NCBI RefSeq assembly: GCF_002920535.1
Contig: NZ_PQSS01000023.1
Span: 1 to 64,000 of the forward strand
From: Streptomyces sp. Ru71
GTDB lineage: Bacteria > Actinomycetota > Actinomycetes > Streptomycetales > Streptomycetaceae
Reading direction: 5' to 3'
Length of the DNA stretch: 64,000 bases
Below are positions 51,401 to 59,832 of the stretch, one piece after another (position 1 is the stretch's first letter; each line of letters starts with the position of its first letter). The notes below the pieces were generated by a model. That model saw only the letters and a program-made list of their open reading frames with translations. It made no database searches and was not told the DNA's origin. The position numbers were made by a program, and so were the translations under genes.

Positions 51401-52237
51401 ATGAAGAAGGATCAGTTCCTCACCCGGCGCCGGGTGCTGCTCGCCGGCGCCGCCGCACTGGGGGCGGCCGGCACCGCCGGGCTGTTCGCCCTGGGCGGCG
51501 CCGACGAGCCGGCCCCCTCGGCCGCCCCCGCCGCCGGCGCCCCGGTGCAGCCGTCGCGCAAGCCGTCCGCCTACCGGCTGCAGCCCCTGACCGGAGACGA
51601 GCCGCCGCGCGCCCTGCCGCCGCGCACGCCCGTGCGGAGCGAACCGCTGCTCAGCATGCCCGCACGCGGCCGCACCATGTACCTGACCTTCGACGACGGA
51701 CCCGACCCGCGCTACACCCCGGACATCCTCGACACCCTGCGCGAGTACGACGTGCGGGCCACCTTCTTCGTGTGCGGCGAGATGGCCTCGTACAACAGGG
51801 ACCTGCTGGCGCGCATGGCCGACGAGGGCCATGTCGTCGGCAACCACACCTGGACCCACCCGCTGCTCACCCAGCTCGACCGGGCGGAGATCCGCGACGA
51901 GATGGAGCGCACCAGCGACATCATCGAGGACACCTACGGCGAGCGCCCGCGCTGGTTCCGCGCCCCGTACGGCGCCTGGAACCGCGCCGCCTTCCAACTG
52001 GGCGCCGCGATGGGGATGGAGCCGCTGGCCTGGACGGTCGACACCGAGGACTGGACCACCCCCGGCACCAGGGCCATCGTCCGCGCCGTCGAGGACGGCG
52101 CCGGCCCCGGTGTCGTGGTGCTCTCGCACGACGCCGGCGGCGACCGCTCCCAGAGCGTGCGCGCGCTGCGCAGCTACCTGCCGCAACTGCTGGACTCCGG
52201 CTACCACCTCACCGTGCCGAGCCGGCCGTACGCGTAG
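51401..52237 (+). CDS. Tat-exported polysaccharide deacetylase (NodB domain)
   Basis: Secreted CE4-type deacetylase, expected to remove N-acetyl groups from peptidoglycan, chitin or another polysaccharide. Residues 1-35 are a twin-arginine signal ('LTRRRVLLAGAAALGAAGTA'). The NodB domain carries 'YLTFDDGPDPRYTPDIL' (D98, D99) and 'GNHTWTHPLL' (H149, H153), which form the metal site, and 'RWFRAPYGAWNRAAF' (motif 3). ATG 51401 is used; an in-frame TTG two codons earlier is possible. Its stop TAG is directly followed by a MITE-like insertion that separates it from a terminator at 52441. Confidence 0.93.
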   Translation: MKKDQFLTRRRVLLAGAAALGAAGTAGLFALGGADEPAPSAAPAAGAPVQPSRKPSAYRLQPLTGDEPPRALPPRTPVRSEPLLSMPARGRTMYLTFDDGPDPRYTPDILDTLREYDVRATFFVCGEMASYNRDLLARMADEGHVVGNHTWTHPLLTQLDRAEIRDEMERTSDIIEDTYGERPRWFRAPYGAWNRAAFQLGAAMGMEPLAWTVDTEDWTTPGTRAIVRAVEDGAGPGVVVLSHDAGGDRSQSVRALRSYLPQLLDSGYHLTVPSRPYA

Positions 52238-52420
52238 GCCCTGTCGTTTGGATCATCCCGGCGTCGCGGGGCCTGGCACGCTCCCCCGAGCTCTGCGAGC
52301 AGGGGGCACCCCCACCGCGTTGTCGCCCTCCTCCGCCTTGCAGCTGCATGCACCAGACCCCGCTCGGGCCGGCCGAGAGGCGCCGTTTCTCACAGCCGGC
52401 CTGATCCAAACGCCAGGGCC
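52237..52420. mobile_element. 184-bp MITE-like element with TA flanks
   Basis: The ends are inverted repeats: GCCCTGTCGTTTGGATCA at 52238-52255 and TGATCCAAACGCCAGGGC at 52402-52419 (17 of 18 pairs match). The sequence between has no coding capacity. TA dinucleotides at 52235-52236 and 52421-52422 flank the element exactly as a target duplication of an IS630/Tc1-mariner-type transposase would. Very similar short elements are, from memory, common in Streptomyces intergenic regions. No transposase is present, so it would have been moved in trans. Confidence 0.8.
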
Positions 52421-52421
52421 T

Positions 52422-52891
52422 AGGCGGTCTCGCCCGGATCAGCGGGCAGGGCGGAGTCCATCCGTCCTGCCCGCTGTATTTGTTATGCCTCAACTCCCCT
52501 TGCAATATGCCCTCCTGTAATGGTGTGAGTTGCTCCACATGTCTATTGTGCCCTCGCGCCCTGCCATACCTCCGAGCAGCTCGGCCGGATAACTGACCGA
52601 AGTCCATGGTGGATTGGGGTCGGCCGGGGTTAAGGTGGCCCACCGGAGAAACAGGCTGAGTGCTCAACTCGGAATCTCGTGAGGGGTGGCGTTGTGTCTA
52701 CGCGGTTGTCGGCGTCGGATTCACGCCCCCGGTGACGTTCACATCAGAACGCACATGCCCTCAAGGCCTCCTTCATCGCGCGCACTCTTCCGGCCGTTTC
52801 CCATGCGTTGATTCCCTTTCACCTCTGACCCTGATCCGGCTGTTGGCATCCCCGGAACAGGTCATTTCCTGTACCCATTCGGCAAGGAAAG
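52422..52891. other. 470-bp AT-richer spacer before the RHS gene
   Basis: Apart from the terminator at 52441 I see no gene here. Base composition drops well below that of the flanking genes (for example around 52478-52570 and 52850-52900). This fits an accessory insertion boundary and the promoter of the RHS gene; no tRNA or att-like repeat was found. Confidence 0.5.
52441..52484 (+). terminator. terminator hairpin with T-rich tail
   Basis: AGCGGGCAGG (52441-52450) pairs perfectly with CCTGCCCGCT (52466-52475), with an inner GGA/TCC pair, followed by GTATTTGTT. It most likely belonged to the deacetylase gene before the MITE-like element separated them. Confidence 0.8.
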
Positions 52892-55800
52892 TTGGAGAGA
52901 TTGCTGACAAGACGGAAACGTCGGCGCGCTGTGCGCCGAATAGCGGGGGCCGTGGCATTGTTCATGGCCGCGGAGTGCCTGGGCGTCGCCGGGGAGGGCG
53001 TCGCCGGGGCACAGGTTCTGCCGGAAGAGACGTCCGTGGGCACGAAGACCCAGACCCAGACCCCGGCGTCCGCGGCCGACCTGGCGTCGGCGCGTCTGAC
53101 GGCGCGGTTGCGGCATCGACGGGTCGAGGTCGAGTCGGCACGGACGGAGTCGTCGACGACCTGGGTGAACCCTGACGGCACCCTCACCACCGACGTGGCG
53201 TCGGGGCCCGTGCGCTTCAAGCAGAACGGTGCCTGGGTGGGCGTCGATCCCACGCTGGTCCTCGGGGCGGACGGCACGCCCGCGGCCCGGGCGCATCCAC
53301 TGGGCCTGGAACTGGGCGGACGGTCTCCCGCCTCCGTGGCGGCGCGGCTGAAGTCGTCCCACGCCAAGCCGGGGGACGTGCAGGCCCCGGAGTCGTCGCT
53401 GGTGACGCTGGGACGTGGTGACCGGCAACTGGCCATGTCGTGGCGGGGTGTACTGCCCTCACCGTCCCTGGACGGCACCCGCGCGACCTACCGGGACGTG
53501 CTGACCGGCGGTGACCTGGTCGTGGAGGCGACCCGCACCGGGTTCGAGCAGTTCCTGGTGCTGAAGAACCGGGCCGCCGTGGACGCCTCCGGCCGGGTGA
53601 CCCTGACCCTGCGGGCCAAGGGCCTGAAAGCATCCGCCCGGCCCGACGGCTCGGTCGTCTTCACCGACGCCAAGTCGGGCAGGAGCGCGGGGACACTGCC
53701 GGCACCCGTGATGTGGGACGCGGCAGTGAACGCCCGTACGGGAGAGCATCCGCACCGGGCGAAGGTCGCCACCCAGGTCTCCCAGCACGGGAGCTCCATC
53801 GACCTGTCCCTGATACCCGATCGGAGCTTCCTGGACGATCCGGGGACCAGGTTCCCGGTCACGGTCGACCCGGCGGTCGACCTCTCCAGCACCTTCGACA
53901 CCTTCGTCCAGCAGGGCTACGGAGTCGACGAGTCGACCAGTACCGAGCTGAAGCTCGGCAACAACGGTTCCTCGCAGGTGGCCCGTTCGTTCCTGGAGTT
54001 CAACACCTCCGCGATCACCGGAGCGAAGATCGACTCCGCTTCCCTGAAGCTGTACGAGACGCATTCGTGGTCGTGCGCGGCGAGATCGTGGGACGTGTGG
54101 GAGACCGGGAAGGCCACCACCGCGACGCGATGGACCGCTCAGCCCGCCTGGAACAAGAAGTGGGCCACCTCCACGCAGACCAAGGGATACTCGTCCTCCT
54201 GCGCGGCCGGCTGGGTCTCCGCGGACGTGACCGCGCTGGCGCAGAAGTGGGCCGATGGCACGACGACCTCGAACACCCTGGGCATCCGCGCGTCGGACGA
54301 GACCGATGCGTACGGCTGGAAGCGTTTCAACTCCGGCAACGCGGCCTCGAACACGCCCTACCTCTCGGTGACCTACAACAGCCTCCCGTGGGCCTCGGCG
54401 CAGGCCGTCGCGCCGTCGTCGGTCAACGCCTACAACGGCAAGCGGTACGTCACCTCCCTGACCCCGACTCTCTCGGCGCAGGTGGGGGACCCGGGCGGCG
54501 CGGAGGTGCAGGGGCAGTTCGAGGTGACCCCCGACCCGGCCTACAACGACGCCGGTTCGTACACCTGGACCGGCACCTCGGCATCGGTGACCTCCGGCGA
54601 GACGGCCTCGCTCCCGGTGCCCTCGGCCAACGCCTTCCCGGCCGGCTCGCATCTCAGGTTCCGCGTGCGCGGGTACAACGGCAGAGCGTACGGAGCCTGG
54701 TCGGGCTACCAGCCTTTCGTCCTGAACACGGCCGCTCCGGCGGCACCGACCGTCACCTGTGACGCCTACGCGAAGGACGCGTGGTCGGCGAAGGCCTCGG
54801 GCGGGGCCAAGTGCACCTTCGACACCTCCTCCACCGACGGCAGGGGCTTCTCCTGGGGTCTGGACGACCCGAACACCCCGAAGCTCGTGGAGGACTCCAC
54901 CGACGGCACCGGCGGTGACGCCCTCAGCGTCACGATCGATCCCGACGAGGGCAAGCACACGCTGTACGCCAAGACCGTCGACTCGGGTGGCAACGTCTCC
55001 ACCACGACGACCGTCTACAGCTTCGCCGTCGGAGCGGACGGCGCCGCACTGATCGCCCCGGAGTCCGGGGCCAACACCGCTCGCCGGCTCCGCCTGTCGG
55101 CGCAGTCCAAGTCCTCCTACACGGGGGTCACCTACGAGTACCGGCGGGGCGAGACCGACACCTGGCACACCGTGCCGCAGAGCGACGTCACCAAGGCCTC
55201 GGACGGGTCCGCTGTGACCTGGCCGGTACCGGTCAGCAACGGCTTTCCGCCCGATCTGACGTGGAACATCACCACCTCGCTCAGCGAGGACGGACCCGTG
55301 GACGTGCGGGCCACGTTCACCGCCGGCACGGTCACGGGGCACTCCCAGACGAACACCGTCCTGGTCGACCGCAGTGCCGGAACCGCGCCCTCCGAGGACG
55401 TCGGGCCCGGCGAGGTGAATCTCCTCACCGGTGACTACACGCTGGCGGAGGACGACGCGTCGGAGTTCGAGCTGTCGGTCTCCCGCACCGCCTCCTCCCG
55501 TCGCCCGACGAACGGCAGCGCGCAGGAGGGGCAGGCGGCGATCTTCGGTCCCCAGTGGACCAACGCGAGCACCGCGGACGTCTCCGACAGCGACTGGGCG
55601 TATCTGCGCAAGATCTCCTCCAGCTCGGTCGCCGTGGTGGACATCGACGGTGACCAGACCGGCTTCACCGCCACCGCGTCCGGCGGCTGGAAGCCCGAGC
55701 CGGGCGCCGAGGACCTGACGCTCACCGGATCACTGAGCGGATCGTTCACCCTCAAGGACACCGAGGGCACCACTGCCACGTTCGCCAAGATCGACCCGTC

Positions 55801-58800
55801 GGCGACGACGTGGCAGGTGGTCAGCACGGCGCTGCCCACCGGTGACTCGACGACGAGGATCAAGTACGAGCAGGTGACGGTCGGCGGCAAGCTGCTCGCC
55901 CGGCCCAAGTACATGATCGCCCCGACCTCCGCCGTCGCGAGCACGACCTGCGAGACGGCACCGGTCACCAAGGGCTGCCGGGTCCTGGAGTACGTGTACG
56001 CCACCTCCACCACGGCCACCGCCACCACCCTGGGCGACTTCGCCAACCAGGTGAAGCAGGTCCGCGTGTGGGCCACCGATCCGGGAGCCTCCGCGGCGAC
56101 CGCGGTGGCCGTCGCCCAGTACTCCTACGACAGCGAGGGCCGGCTCAGGGAGACCTGGGACCCGCGGATCACTCCGGCGCTGAAGACGAGCTATGGCTAC
56201 GACAGCGCGGGCCGGGTCACCACGCTCACTCCGCCCGGAGAGCTGCCGTGGACGTTCAGCTACGGCAAGGCGGGGAACGCCGCCACCGCCGGCGACGGCA
56301 TGCTGCTGTCCGTCTCCCGGCCGACCCTGAAGCAGGGTTCCGCCACGGAGACCGATGGCGGCACGGCCAGCGCCACGATCGTCTACGACGTGCCGCTCGC
56401 CGGATCCGGGGCTCCGTACCAGATGGGCGCGACGGATGTGGCCAAGTGGGGCCAGGTCGACGCTCCCACCGATGCCACCGCCGTCTTCCCGGCCGACTCC
56501 GTTCCCGCCTCGCACGACGGCACCGCCGTCCCGGCGACCGGCTATGCCCGGGCCTCGATCACCTATGCGGACGCCTCCGGACGCGAGGTCAACAGCGCCG
56601 ACCCGGGTGGCCACATCGACGCCACCGAGTACGACCGGTACGGCAACGAGGTGCGGGAACTCACCGCGGCCAACAGGTCCTTGGCGCTGGCCTCCTCGGG
56701 CAGTGCGCTGACCCGGCTGAACCAGCTCGGCATCGGGGGCCTGGCCACCGCGGACCGGGCCCAGCAGCTCGCCACGGTCACGGTGTACAGCGCGGACGGG
56801 CAGCGTGAACTGGAGTCCCTTGAGCCCCTCCACATGGCCGTCGTGACCGCCGACGTCCGAGCGGCCGACGGATCGATCGCCGTGCCGGCCGGGACGCCGG
56901 CTCCGGTGCGCGAGCACACCGTGACCAGCTTCGACGAGGGCCGTCCGGCGGATGCCGCGGTCTCCGACCTGCCCACGACCGTGAAGGTCGGGGCGCGGCT
57001 GAGCGGGTTTCCCTCCGACGCGGACGTGCGGACGTCCAAGATGGAGTACGACTGGGCGACGGGTCTCCCCGTGAAGACGATCGACGACCCGGGTGGGAAG
57101 AACATCGTCAAGACCATGGCCTATGACGCGGAAGGCCGCATCAAGAAGGTCACCGCTCCCATGTCGAACGGAGCGGACGCGGGCACCACGCTCACCTCGT
57201 ACTGGACCGCGACGGGAACCGGACCGTGCTCGGGCCGCCCCGAATGGGCCGACCTGACCTGTTCCGTGGGCCCGGCCGGAGCCATCACCGGGGGTGGAAG
57301 CAACCCTGCCTCCCTGCCGTCCGCGACCACCGAGTACGACCGCTGGGGCGACCCGGCGACCGTCACGGTGACCGCCAACGGTGTCACCCGTACGACGGTC
57401 AACACGAGGGACGCCGCCGGCCGTGTGACGGCGGTCGAGACGACCGGCGGAATCGGCACGCCAGTCCCGCCGACCACCACCACCTACGACCCGGACACGG
57501 GCGAGGTGGCGACGGTCACTTCGGCAGGACAGACCCTCACCTACGTCCAGGACAAGCTGGGCCGGCAGATCTCGTACGACGACGGCCAGGGCAACACCAC
57601 CACGACCGAGTACGACGCTCTCGGCAGGCCGGTGAAGACCTCCGACTCGGCCCCCTCCACCACCACCTACAGCTACGACACCACGAAGGAACCGCGCGGT
57701 CTGCCGACCTCGCTCACCGACTCGGTGGCCGGCACCTTCAGCGCCGGCTACGACGAGGACGGCGAAATCGCCACCGAGCATCTGCCGGGCGGCATCACCC
57801 TCTCCGTCACCGAGGACGAGACGGGCTCCGACACCTCCCGGACCTACACCCGGGACTCGGACGGCAGCGTCGTGCTCGCGGACGGCGCCGAGGAGTCCGT
57901 CCACGGCCAGACCGTGCACCAGGTCAGCACGGCCGGTGCGACGACCGATCAGCAGTTCGGCTATGACAGCCTCGGCAGGCTCGTCCGCGCCGACAACACC
58001 GCGCCGGACAACACCTGCACCCGGCACTCCTACACCTTCGACAACAACACCAACCGGACCGGACTCGACACCTCCACAGCGGCTCCCGGTACGCCGTGCA
58101 CCAGTGCCGGAGCCACCACGACGACGACCGCCTACGACAGCGCCGATCGCCTCATCGCGGCAGGCGTGACCTACGACGCCTTCGGCCGGACGACCACGCA
58201 GGCGGGCGGCTCCAGCCTGGCGTACTACACCAACGACCTGGTGCGGCAGCAGACCGCCGACGGACAGCGCCAGACCTGGAACCTGGACGCCGCCGGACGC
58301 CTCGGCGCCTGGACGGTGGAGTCCCAGAACGCCGACGGCAGCTGGACCCGGACCGGGTCGAAGACCAACCACTACGGCGACGACGGAGACGAGCCCACCT
58401 GGACTCTCGAAGACGCCGTCACCCACTCCATCACCCGCGACGTCGAAGACCTGGACAACGACCTGGCCGCGATCACCAGCGCCACCGGTGACATCGTGCT
58501 CCAGCTCACCGACCTGCACGGCGACGTCCGCGTGCAGTTGCCCCTCGACACGAGCCAGAGCCCGACGGTGCTGGACTCCGACGAGTACGGCATCCCGCGC
58601 GACGGGCAGGCGAGGACACGCTACGGATGGCTCGGCGCCGAGCAGCGGTCGGCCGAGACGCTCACCGGCATCATCCTCATGGGTGTCCGCCTGTACGACC
58701 CCACCCTCGGCCGCTTCCTCTCCATCGACCCGGTCGCCGGCGGCAACGCCAACGCGTACGAGTACTGCTCCGCGGATCCCGTCAACTGCTTCGACCTCGA

Positions 58801-59302
58801 CGGCAGGTTCGGCTGGGGCAAGTTCTTCGACCGGGTCGGGACGGGACTGTCCATCGCCGGAGCCTTCGGCTGTGGCCCCTGTGCGGCAGGGGCGGCCGTC
58901 ATCGGCGGAGCCCGTGGCATCTACAAGGTGACCCACGGGGACCGGTCGGGGTGGATAGACATCGCCGGCAGTGCCTTCTACGGTGGGGCGAAAGCAGCGA
59001 AGTGGGGCGGCAAGCTGATGAAGTCGCGCCGCATCGCCAAGAACCCCAAGGGCGTCAAGGGCAAGGGGAACAAGAGAGGACCGGCGCGGAAACACAAACG
59101 CGCACGCTCGAAGGCGGCGAAGAAGCACAAGCGTCACCACCGCAAGGTCGTGCACCGAGCCGACAAGATAGACAAGTGGTACGGCAACGGCAGCCTTGTC
59201 TATGGCCTGTACGGCGAGTACAGCGACTACAAGGCCAGTAAGAAGCACCACCACAAGAAGAAGAAGCACAAGAAGAAGCACAAGAGGAAGAAGCACCACT
59301 AG
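52892..59302 (+). CDS. giant secreted RHS/YD-repeat protein with variable C-terminal tail (candidate polymorphic toxin)
   Basis: A 2136-residue protein with the layout of secreted polymorphic toxins. Residues 1-40 are a very basic Sec-type signal ('RRIAGAVALFMAAECLGVAG'). A DNRLRE domain lies at about 327-496 ('QVARSFLEFNTSAITGAKID') and Ig/FN3-like modules to about 720. RHS YD repeats run from about 843 to 1900 (many 'YDSAGRVTTLTPPG' and 'TTTTEYDALGRPVKTSD' types), and the RHS core ends with 'MGVRLYDPTLGRFLSIDPV' and 'NAYEYCSADPVNCFDLDG' near 1966. The last 165 residues differ: a glycine-rich hydrophobic segment ('LSIAGAFGCGPCAAGAAVIG') then a Lys/His-rich tail. TTG 52892 has AAGGAAA upstream. 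Its stop overlaps the next start (TAGTG). Confidence 0.87.
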   Translation: MERLLTRRKRRRAVRRIAGAVALFMAAECLGVAGEGVAGAQVLPEETSVGTKTQTQTPASAADLASARLTARLRHRRVEVESARTESSTTWVNPDGTLTTDVASGPVRFKQNGAWVGVDPTLVLGADGTPAARAHPLGLELGGRSPASVAARLKSSHAKPGDVQAPESSLVTLGRGDRQLAMSWRGVLPSPSLDGTRATYRDVLTGGDLVVEATRTGFEQFLVLKNRAAVDASGRVTLTLRAKGLKASARPDGSVVFTDAKSGRSAGTLPAPVMWDAAVNARTGEHPHRAKVATQVSQHGSSIDLSLIPDRSFLDDPGTRFPVTVDPAVDLSSTFDTFVQQGYGVDESTSTELKLGNNGSSQVARSFLEFNTSAITGAKIDSASLKLYETHSWSCAARSWDVWETGKATTATRWTAQPAWNKKWATSTQTKGYSSSCAAGWVSADVTALAQKWADGTTTSNTLGIRASDETDAYGWKRFNSGNAASNTPYLSVTYNSLPWASAQAVAPSSVNAYNGKRYVTSLTPTLSAQVGDPGGAEVQGQFEVTPDPAYNDAGSYTWTGTSASVTSGETASLPVPSANAFPAGSHLRFRVRGYNGRAYGAWSGYQPFVLNTAAPAAPTVTCDAYAKDAWSAKASGGAKCTFDTSSTDGRGFSWGLDDPNTPKLVEDSTDGTGGDALSVTIDPDEGKHTLYAKTVDSGGNVSTTTTVYSFAVGADGAALIAPESGANTARRLRLSAQSKSSYTGVTYEYRRGETDTWHTVPQSDVTKASDGSAVTWPVPVSNGFPPDLTWNITTSLSEDGPVDVRATFTAGTVTGHSQTNTVLVDRSAGTAPSEDVGPGEVNLLTGDYTLAEDDASEFELSVSRTASSRRPTNGSAQEGQAAIFGPQWTNASTADVSDSDWAYLRKISSSSVAVVDIDGDQTGFTATASGGWKPEPGAEDLTLTGSLSGSFTLKDTEGTTATFAKIDPSATTWQVVSTALPTGDSTTRIKYEQVTVGGKLLARPKYMIAPTSAVASTTCETAPVTKGCRVLEYVYATSTTATATTLGDFANQVKQVRVWATDPGASAATAVAVAQYSYDSEGRLRETWDPRITPALKTSYGYDSAGRVTTLTPPGELPWTFSYGKAGNAATAGDGMLLSVSRPTLKQGSATETDGGTASATIVYDVPLAGSGAPYQMGATDVAKWGQVDAPTDATAVFPADSVPASHDGTAVPATGYARASITYADASGREVNSADPGGHIDATEYDRYGNEVRELTAANRSLALASSGSALTRLNQLGIGGLATADRAQQLATVTVYSADGQRELESLEPLHMAVVTADVRAADGSIAVPAGTPAPVREHTVTSFDEGRPADAAVSDLPTTVKVGARLSGFPSDADVRTSKMEYDWATGLPVKTIDDPGGKNIVKTMAYDAEGRIKKVTAPMSNGADAGTTLTSYWTATGTGPCSGRPEWADLTCSVGPAGAITGGGSNPASLPSATTEYDRWGDPATVTVTANGVTRTTVNTRDAAGRVTAVETTGGIGTPVPPTTTTYDPDTGEVATVTSAGQTLTYVQDKLGRQISYDDGQGNTTTTEYDALGRPVKTSDSAPSTTTYSYDTTKEPRGLPTSLTDSVAGTFSAGYDEDGEIATEHLPGGITLSVTEDETGSDTSRTYTRDSDGSVVLADGAEESVHGQTVHQVSTAGATTDQQFGYDSLGRLVRADNTAPDNTCTRHSYTFDNNTNRTGLDTSTAAPGTPCTSAGATTTTTAYDSADRLIAAGVTYDAFGRTTTQAGGSSLAYYTNDLVRQQTADGQRQTWNLDAAGRLGAWTVESQNADGSWTRTGSKTNHYGDDGDEPTWTLEDAVTHSITRDVEDLDNDLAAITSATGDIVLQLTDLHGDVRVQLPLDTSQSPTVLDSDEYGIPRDGQARTRYGWLGAEQRSAETLTGIILMGVRLYDPTLGRFLSIDPVAGGNANAYEYCSADPVNCFDLDGRFGWGKFFDRVGTGLSIAGAFGCGPCAAGAAVIGGARGIYKVTHGDRSGWIDIAGSAFYGGAKAAKWGGKLMKSRRIAKNPKGVKGKGNKRGPARKHKRARSKAAKKHKRHHRKVVHRADKIDKWYGNGSLVYGLYGEYSDYKASKKHHHKKKKHKKKHKRKKHH

Positions 59303-59832
59303 TGACCGCAGGACACGTCACCGGGCGCCTGGGTCGCATGGCTCCCGCAGCCGACCGGCTGGCCGCCGGTCTGATCGACCGGCTCGCCGCCCGGTTCGGT
59401 GCGGAAGGCGCCCCGCCGGTGCTCGGTGACGTGTCCCTGGCGCGAACCCGGATCGCCGCCAAGTCCGGAAGGATGTCCACCACGACGATGCAGGCCTGGG
59501 GGACTCTTGAGGAGTTCTACCAGTTCACCGCATGGTTGTGGTTCGTCCTGGCCATCGTGTCAGGGGCCGTGCTGACGGCGGCACACCTCGTCGTCCCCTC
59601 GGGATGGTGGCTCACCGTCGCCGACGCCCTCGGCGTCCCGTGGCTCTGTCTGTGCTCGGGATTCTTCGCCAGTCGGCTCGTGGTCGCCACAGCGGCGGGC
59701 ACGGCGGTCAAGCGGCAGCACGCCGGGGCGCGGCGCGCGCGGGTGGTGAACCGTTTCGTGGAGACTCCCGCCGTGGTGTGGCTGGCGCTGGCCTTCGTTC
59801 CGGTGTGGGCCCTCGCCGTCTTCGCCACCTGA
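59302..59832 (+). CDS. small three-helix membrane protein, candidate immunity protein
   Basis: A 176-residue protein with a polar first 65 residues and three hydrophobic segments ('FTAWLWFVLAIVSGAVLTAA', 'LGVPWLCLCSGFFASRLVVA' and 'TPAVVWLALAFVPVWALAVF'). I do not recognise a family. The GTG start shares a base with the RHS stop (TAGTG), a tight coupling typical of toxin-immunity pairs; the A/G-rich end of the RHS gene (AGAGGAAGAAG) may be its ribosome site. A membrane-located immunity protein would fit a toxin whose C-terminus acts on membranes. This role is inference from position and topology only. Confidence 0.75.
   Translation: MTAGHVTGRLGRMAPAADRLAAGLIDRLAARFGAEGAPPVLGDVSLARTRIAAKSGRMSTTTMQAWGTLEEFYQFTAWLWFVLAIVSGAVLTAAHLVVPSGWWLTVADALGVPWLCLCSGFFASRLVVATAAGTAVKRQHAGARRARVVNRFVETPAVVWLALAFVPVWALAVFAT

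What the first reader, a model, noticed from the sequence alone, without database searches (positions are those of the whole stretch)
52892..59832. Secreted RHS protein coupled to an unknown membrane protein: candidate new toxin-immunity pair
The RHS core ends in the usual 'GRFLSIDPV...DLDG' boundary, after which the sequence changes character. The next gene overlaps the stop (TAGTG) and encodes a small three-helix membrane protein I do not recognise. This is the layout of polymorphic toxin loci, but I recognise neither the tail nor the partner. The protein has its own signal peptide, so it may act by contact or release rather than through a type VI system. The AT-richer upstream region and adjacent MITE suggest horizontal acquisition.
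Basis: partly seen in the sequence, partly recalled or inferred. Interest (0 to 1): 0.75.

Follow-up and report, generated by a model that had tools for sequence, protein, structure and literature searches.

The report
Secreted RHS toxin with membrane guardian
A soil bacterium carries an inserted gene for a giant secreted shell protein that probably delivers a membrane-damaging toxin to rival bacteria, followed directly by a small membrane protein that probably protects the producer; the general kind is known, but this toxin and its protector matched no named family in the libraries searched.

Summary
A 2136-aa RHS protein with a signal-peptide-like start ends its core at DLDG (58804), continues for 165 cationic, Gly-rich residues, and is overlapped by one base by a 176-aa, 3-TM protein without family match. 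It looks like a polymorphic-toxin locus: in 100 related loci that I chose, tails fall into 37 classes on one scaffold, some with known toxin domains, and 12 of 16 multi-member classes keep a downstream ORF. The locus is inserted: in 20 of 24 relatives' sortase loci the flanking deacetylase adjoins the sortase. The tail has one clear full-length relative (L088) and a distant one (L089); both are followed by 3-TM proteins of P0002's topology, as are two fainter relatives, and 0 of 93 other loci. L088's locus carries an array of five small membrane-protein ORFs. Against: P0002 has no detectable sequence similarity to those partners, my five-tail grouping and topology rule were made after the fact, and two tails with other partners (L100, L109) are about as near as the fainter ones. 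Inferred mechanism: the released tail depolarises the target membrane; the partner blocks it in the producer. New member of a known kind; function untested.

The parts
52231..52426 (.). MITE-like element (32-nt inverted arms) at the left edge of the insertion
   Evidence: arms; TIR; other copies in the genome
52892..59302 (+). RHS protein: signal-peptide-like N-terminus, DNRLRE domain (aa 336-494), YD/RHS repeats, Rhs-associated core (aa 1898-1971), variable tail
58727..58804 (+). C-terminal plug DPVAGGNANAYEYCSADPVNCFDLDG: two Asp 22 residues apart, the spacing of the DPXGX18DPXG aspartyl-protease motif
   Evidence: spacing census; motif from PMC10684867 (passages)
58805..59299 (+). polymorphic C-terminal tail, predicted toxin: Gly-rich hydrophobic helices then a cationic region
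59302..59832 (+). 176-aa, 3-TM protein, predicted immunity protein

Best explanation
This is a secreted RHS polymorphic toxin with its immunity gene. Proposed steps. (1) The RHS protein is exported by its own signal peptide (inferred from sequence). (2) Its YD-repeat shell encloses the C-terminal tail, and the Asp pair at the plug cuts the tail off near DLDG (inferred from motif spacing). (3) On or near another streptomycete the tail is released and its Gly-rich hydrophobic helices, with the cationic region, insert into the cytoplasmic membrane and collapse the membrane potential (inferred). (4) The overlapping gene makes a 3-TM protein in the producer's membrane that binds the tail there and prevents insertion or pore opening (inferred from position and topology). 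Shown here: the core boundary, tail polymorphism on one scaffold, the shared partner topology behind the nearest tails, an array and orphans of partner-type genes, and insertion of the locus.
For: Tails on this scaffold: 37 classes in 100 loci, among them prokaryotic phospholipase A2, PT-HINT, GIY-YIG, DUF6973, and Tox-URI2 just below its cut-off. Window and L088 tails are homologous over their length (37% identity; z = 22.4, 19.9). Ranked blind to partners, the two tails nearest the window's of 99 are L088 and L089 (z 19.9, 6.3); both, and the fainter relatives L090 and L093, are followed by a 151-196-aa ORF with a 2-TM hairpin, a K/R-rich loop and a C-terminal TM, which 0 of 93 other loci have. 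An ORF with 2 or more TM follows the tail in 34 of 98 loci, against 2 of 98 on the reverse strand and 5 of 84 at 1.5 kb downstream. In G127 five small membrane-protein ORFs lie in a row behind the toxin; two match partners of other tail classes (79% and 56% identity), one is a second copy of the cognate. Orphan partners in G206 and G185. 7.6-kb insertion. Asp-Asp spacing 22 in 59 and 21 in 13 of 77 loci where it could be read.
Against: P0002 is not detectably homologous to any other partner: BLASTP E 3.1; not found by profiles of the others; pairwise z 0.0-3.2; hhalign probability 0.2%. By BLAST no downstream ORF is conserved between L087 and L088; the same holds for 4 of 16 multi-member classes, this one included. 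My grouping of five tails is after the fact: BLAST clustering puts only L088 with the window, and L089, L090, L093 in a broad class of 20 loci; a profile of L087+L088 recruits nothing at 1e-3; direct BLAST lists L109 and L100, with 63-aa 2-TM partners, but not L089; in the blind ranking L090 is 7th and L093 outside the first 15. The topology rule was also set after seeing the five. Hydrophobic tails and TM partners are not significantly associated (OR 2.3, p = 0.076). The tail lacks a GxxxGxxxG zipper, and its model is poor (pLDDT 51).
Confidence: 0.55

Rival explanations
1. The hydrophobic part of the tail is only an entry or pre-toxin segment; the harmful part is the cationic C-terminal half, acting inside the target (for example binding or cutting nucleic acid). 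The 3-TM protein would then block entry rather than neutralise a pore.
For: Tails of other loci have a similar hydrophobic segment (GFIPGLGAAAWAYRAYR and the like) in front of other sequence: L084 with PT-HINT, L068 with a non-TM partner; L097 has a comparable stretch before PT-HINT. The tail is highly basic (+40), but so are most tails (71 of 100 above +0.1 per residue).
Against: No nuclease or nucleic-acid family match to the tail (PHROG matches fall on the K/R/H-rich stretch and have no function). The partners behind the window tail and its four relatives are membrane proteins, whereas L068 has a non-TM ORF behind it.
Confidence: 0.24
2. The RHS protein is a wall or adhesion protein with a structural tail, and the membrane protein is an unrelated neighbour or export helper.
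For: No toxicity data; P0002 has no homologue found; inserted next to cell-wall genes (deacetylase, class F sortase).
Against: Tail polymorphism, known toxin domains on the same scaffold, array and orphans of partner-type genes.
Confidence: 0.13
3. P0002 is not the cognate immunity protein; it was left from another cassette or replaced the original.
For: No sequence similarity to the partner of the closest tail.
Against: One-base overlap with the tail's stop; same topology as the partners of L088 and L089.
Confidence: 0.08

Closest known systems
Tse5/Tsi5 (Rhs pore-forming effector of Pseudomonas aeruginosa)
   Same: RHS shell with C-terminal plug carrying paired Asp; C-terminal toxin with immunity protein in the cytoplasmic membrane; Tse5 is among five weak PDB sequence matches to the RHS protein (E 1.4e-4). 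Passages read.
   Different: Tse5 uses the type VI system; Tsi5 has two predicted TM regions; no PDB match of the window tail.
CDI ionophore toxins and CdiI (CdiA-CT EC93 class)
   Same: Membrane-depolarising polymorphic tails, small hydrophobic immunity proteins that diverge very fast (~30% identity within a group); abstract and two sections read.
   Different: Delivered by CdiA; CdiI is a 72-100-aa two-helix hairpin; those toxins share a glycine zipper that the window tail lacks.
TspA/TsaI (Staphylococcus aureus type VII)
   Same: Gram-positive membrane-depolarising polymorphic toxin, membrane immunity protein, several immunity homologues at the locus (passages read).
   Different: Type VII carrier; predicted five-TM DUF443 immunity proteins.
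RHS polymorphic toxins (Zhang et al. 2012, PMC3482391) and bacterial teneurin-like RHS/YD proteins (PMC13018210)
   Same: Scaffold, variable tails, adjacent immunity genes; heterogeneous polyimmunity loci in the former, toxin enclosed in the shell in both Gram groups in the latter. Passages read.
   Different: Neither this tail nor this partner matches a Pfam or NCBIfam family.
Streptomyces umbrella toxins (PMC11062931; search listing only)
   Same: Secreted polymorphic antibacterial proteins of Streptomyces.
   Different: Multi-protein particles (recalled); not compared by sequence here.

Membership tests
RHS polymorphic toxin | YD/RHS repeats and Rhs-associated core | tested here: met
   RHS_repeat 1e-10; Rhs_assc_core 3e-14
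RHS polymorphic toxin | C-terminal plug with paired Asp (DPXGX18DPXG) | tested here: met
   Asp-Asp spacing 22; DPVA...DLDG, so the first G and second P of the consensus differ
RHS polymorphic toxin | Tail differs between relatives while the scaffold is conserved | tested here: met
   of five long homologues in the same genome four have other tails and one is cut by its contig end
RHS polymorphic toxin | Own export signal | tested here: inconclusive
   Signal-peptide-like N-terminus by eye in the window protein and three of four paralogues; no predictor run, start codon uncertain
RHS polymorphic toxin | Tail is toxic, neighbour gives immunity | not testable with these tools
   needs expression assay
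CDI-type ionophore / Tse5-type pore former | Sequence or fold match of the tail to a known member | tested here: not met
   no PDB sequence match; Foldseek best E 2.2 on a low-confidence model, uninformative; no Pfam match of the tail region
CDI-type ionophore / Tse5-type pore former | Glycine zipper GxxxGxxxG | tested here: not met
   absent in the window tail, small-residue variants only
Partner group of L088/L089/L090/L093 | Same topology | tested here: met
   rule set after seeing the five
Partner group of L088/L089/L090/L093 | Detectable sequence homology of P0002 | tested here: not met

The most novel reading that the evidence does not exclude
Streptomyces deploys a broad arsenal of secreted RHS toxins that act on the membrane, in several unrelated tail classes, each paired with its own small membrane immunity protein. 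In the class found here the immunity proteins keep a fixed 3-TM topology while their sequences have diverged beyond recognition, and some strains stockpile immunity genes for several tail classes behind one toxin.
Probability: 0.42. Interest if true: 0.6.

Novelty: new member of a known kind. Interest (0 to 1): 0.45.

Why it matters
If true, it extends membrane-acting RHS toxins, described for a Gram-negative injection system (Tse5), to proteins that streptomycetes simply secrete. It would supply an unnamed toxin class and a fast-diverging immunity class that sequence annotation misses, and it predicts which strains resist which.

Tried and rejected
Pattern scans of genome contigs with P0002 and with the tail gave no relatives (both scans spent; they need exact 8-residue words). 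P0002 and tail in plasmids: no match. P0002 in 246 genus genomes: only itself. Treating P0002 as a sequence homologue of the other partners was rejected; alignments A2 and A6 force P0002 into register and are not evidence of homology, so the E-value for G000 is circular, as are those of the five tails. Structure models of tail (pLDDT 51, pTM 0.23) and partner (pLDDT 63, pTM 0.37) are too weak for fold search; Foldseek found nothing for the partner and only E > 2 matches for the tail. Five predicted helices in the tail recall the five-helix CDI bundles, but at that confidence I give it no weight. A profile of A6 against PDB sequences gave one match at E 0.73, ignored. Association of hydrophobic tails with TM partners was tested and is not significant. 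PHROG matches of the tail cover its K/R/H-rich part; I judge them to be composition. Three weak class-level tail matches (G722, G590, G672) were not followed, nor were four weak partner matches (G005, G155, G164, G204). No Rfam match in the window. PADLOC: none.

The 100 loci are not a random sample: I took them from the listed hits (the second list was cut), favouring those most like the window core or with alignments running into the tail. Two had too little downstream sequence and were dropped (98 of 100). could read 77 of 100. One search examined 25 of the 30 sortase loci, one of them the window itself. output was cut in the middle; tails were recomputed. One search printed at most four members per class, and close relatives among the loci can make a downstream ORF look conserved. 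The ten tails scanned were chosen by me.

Full report
What is there. The window is a stretch of an 8.23-Mb genome (G000:C23:1-64000). The best RHS-core matches on plasmids are mostly named Streptomyces (19 of 23 records), so I take it as Streptomyces (inference). At 52892-59302 lies a 2136-aa RHS protein, at 59302-59832 a 176-aa protein whose GTG start overlaps the RHS stop by one base. The RHS protein has a DNRLRE domain, YD repeats and an Rhs-associated core ending at residue 1971. Its C-terminal plug reads DPVAGGNANAYEYCSADPVNCFDLDG, with two Asp 22 residues apart, the spacing of the DPXGX18DPXG aspartyl-protease motif described for Rhs toxins (PMC10684867, passages). Among 77 related loci where this could be read, 59 have spacing 22 and 13 have 21. 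Cleavage itself is not shown.

The boundary. A query of the last 100 core residues plus the tail was run against 41 relatives and 392 genus genomes; 100 of 392 genomes have a match at E <= 1e-18. Of the 149 matches listed besides the window's own (a capped list), 82 end at or before query 111, that is within 11 residues of DLDG, 39 at 112-150 and 28 later; the longer ones are part real tail relatives and part, I think, shared hydrophobic or basic composition. The same genome has five more long homologues (53-59% identity); four have other tails (one with PT-HINT), the fifth is cut by its contig end.

Polymorphism. I fetched the C-terminal and downstream regions of 100 loci, window included, chosen from those hits. 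Their tails form 37 classes, 16 with two or more members. Of ten tails that I chose for a Pfam scan, seven have a match: PT-HINT (L084, L085, L097, L101), GIY-YIG behind HINT (L101), prokaryotic phospholipase A2 (L079), DUF6973 (L070), and Tox-URI2 just below its cut-off (L074, L097). In 12 of 16 multi-member classes at least one downstream ORF is conserved between members; in four, including the window's, none is by BLAST. An ORF with at least two TM segments follows the tail in 34 of 98 loci, against 2 of 98 for the reverse strand and 5 of 84 for the stretch 1.5 kb downstream. So this scaffold carries known toxin domains and often a small membrane protein next door.

The window's tail. It is homologous over its length to that of L088 (G127): 37% identity, alignment z = 22.4 and 19.9 against shuffles. 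L089 (G339) is a distant relative (z = 6.9 and 6.3). L090 (G402) and L093 (G326) resemble L089 clearly (z 12.9 and 14.0) but the window only faintly (3.2 and 0.7). Profile searches built from these five found no further full-length member in 392 genus genomes or 394 class genomes (three weak partial hits). This five-tail group is mine, made after the fact: BLAST clustering joins only L088 to the window and puts L089, L090 and L093 in a broad class of 20, and L100 and L109, with 63-aa two-TM partners, are about as near to the window tail as L090. The tail is Gly-rich and hydrophobic in its first 80 residues and strongly basic after that (+40 in all). The closest relative's tail lacks the K/H-rich last ~18 residues.

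The partner. Each of the five tails is followed by a 151-196-aa ORF (gap -25 to +113) with an N-terminal soluble part, two TM segments with a nearly uncharged loop, a 20-40-residue K/R-rich loop and a C-terminal TM: 5 of 5, against 0 of 93 other loci (per-protein charges). Both the group and the rule were set after seeing the data, and L090 and L093 are close relatives, so the Fisher p of 1.5e-8 overstates it. Ranked blind to partners, the two nearest of 99 tails (L088, L089) both have the topology; below them the ranking is mixed (L090 7th, L093 outside the first 15). By sequence P0002 is not related to the others at any level I could measure, and the partner subfamilies are hardly more similar to each other (best held-out E 5.8, 0.006 and 0.03). 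Fast divergence of membrane immunity proteins is known: CdiI ionophore immunity proteins of one group share about 30% identity (PMC11630599, abstract and two sections).

Array and orphans. Behind the L088 toxin five small membrane-protein ORFs lie in a row: the presumed cognate, a 65-aa protein 79% identical to the partner of the L129 tail class, a 63-aa protein (hydrophobic by eye), a 158-aa protein 56% identical to the partner of the L105 tail, and a second copy of the cognate type. In G402 a displaced tail end and a second partner copy follow the first pair. G206 and G185 have partner genes with no RHS gene evident among the ORFs of the 3.4 kb fetched; the G185 copy has a stop before its third TM. 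Strings of immunity homologues at one toxin locus are described for TspA/TsaI (PMC7456083, passages) and as heterogeneous polyimmunity loci (PMC3482391, passages).

Insertion. In 20 of 24 sortase loci, each from another relative, the polysaccharide deacetylase and the class F sortase that flank the window's locus are convergent neighbours. In 19 of these 20 the BLAST ends are about 25-140 bp apart, in one (L199) 1.1 kb. None of the 24 shows a match to the RHS protein or P0002 in the 1.5-kb flanks held; the four without a deacetylase include three with only 50-54% sortase identity, probably paralogues. In the window 7.6 kb lie between them. GC is 0.692 for the insertion, 0.635 for its first 650 bases, 0.624 for the tail and 0.730 for the window. 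A MITE-like element with other copies in the genome sits at the left edge; whether it had a part in the insertion is unknown.

Mechanism. Best reading: secreted RHS toxin, tail released by the plug protease, insertion in the target's cytoplasmic membrane, and neutralisation by the 3-TM protein in the producer's membrane. Tse5 shows that an RHS shell can deliver a pore former whose immunity protein is thought to be an integral membrane protein (PMC9637101 and PMC10684867, passages). The rival that I cannot exclude is that the hydrophobic segment is an entry module and the basic half acts inside the cell. The structure models do not decide.

Novelty. The kind (RHS polymorphic toxin with membrane immunity protein) is known. 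The window's tail and partner match no family in Pfam, NCBIfam or PADLOC, the tail no solved structure by sequence, and in PHROGs only function-less profiles match, on the basic stretch of the tail; the related tails and partners scanned had no match above a curated cut-off. My paper searches listed no study of a Streptomyces RHS toxin with a membrane immunity protein; only an open-licence library was searched.

Noticed in passing
L088:158-3453, minus strand (G127:C25): Five small membrane-protein ORFs in a row behind one RHS toxin, two of them related to partners of other tail classes: a heterogeneous immunity array.
   Followed up: yes
L070, L111, L135, L142: Tails of one class (L070 matches DUF6973) are followed by a conserved ORF with an N-terminal hydrophobic segment and, in some, a lipobox-like Cys (by eye), suggesting a toxin neutralised outside the membrane.
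   Followed up: partly
L079 (G261:C6): RHS scaffold in a genome of another family (same class) with a prokaryotic phospholipase A2 tail.
   Followed up: partly
L072/L082, L091/L095/L096, L129/L150, L100/L107/L109, L104/L155: Several other RHS tail classes followed by 62-92-aa proteins with one or two TM segments, much like CdiI ionophore immunity proteins in size.
   Followed up: partly
window 52231-52426: MITE-like repeat with about four near-complete and many partial copies elsewhere in the genome.
   Followed up: partly
G066:C1:12227-12787 and 8608498-8609058: The same RHS tail match appears near both ends of the contig in opposite orientation, as expected for terminal inverted repeats of a linear chromosome.
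   Followed up: no
L090 (G402:C159), 400-900 bp after the tail stop: Displaced tail end and second partner copy, a likely orphan toxin-immunity cassette.
   Followed up: partly
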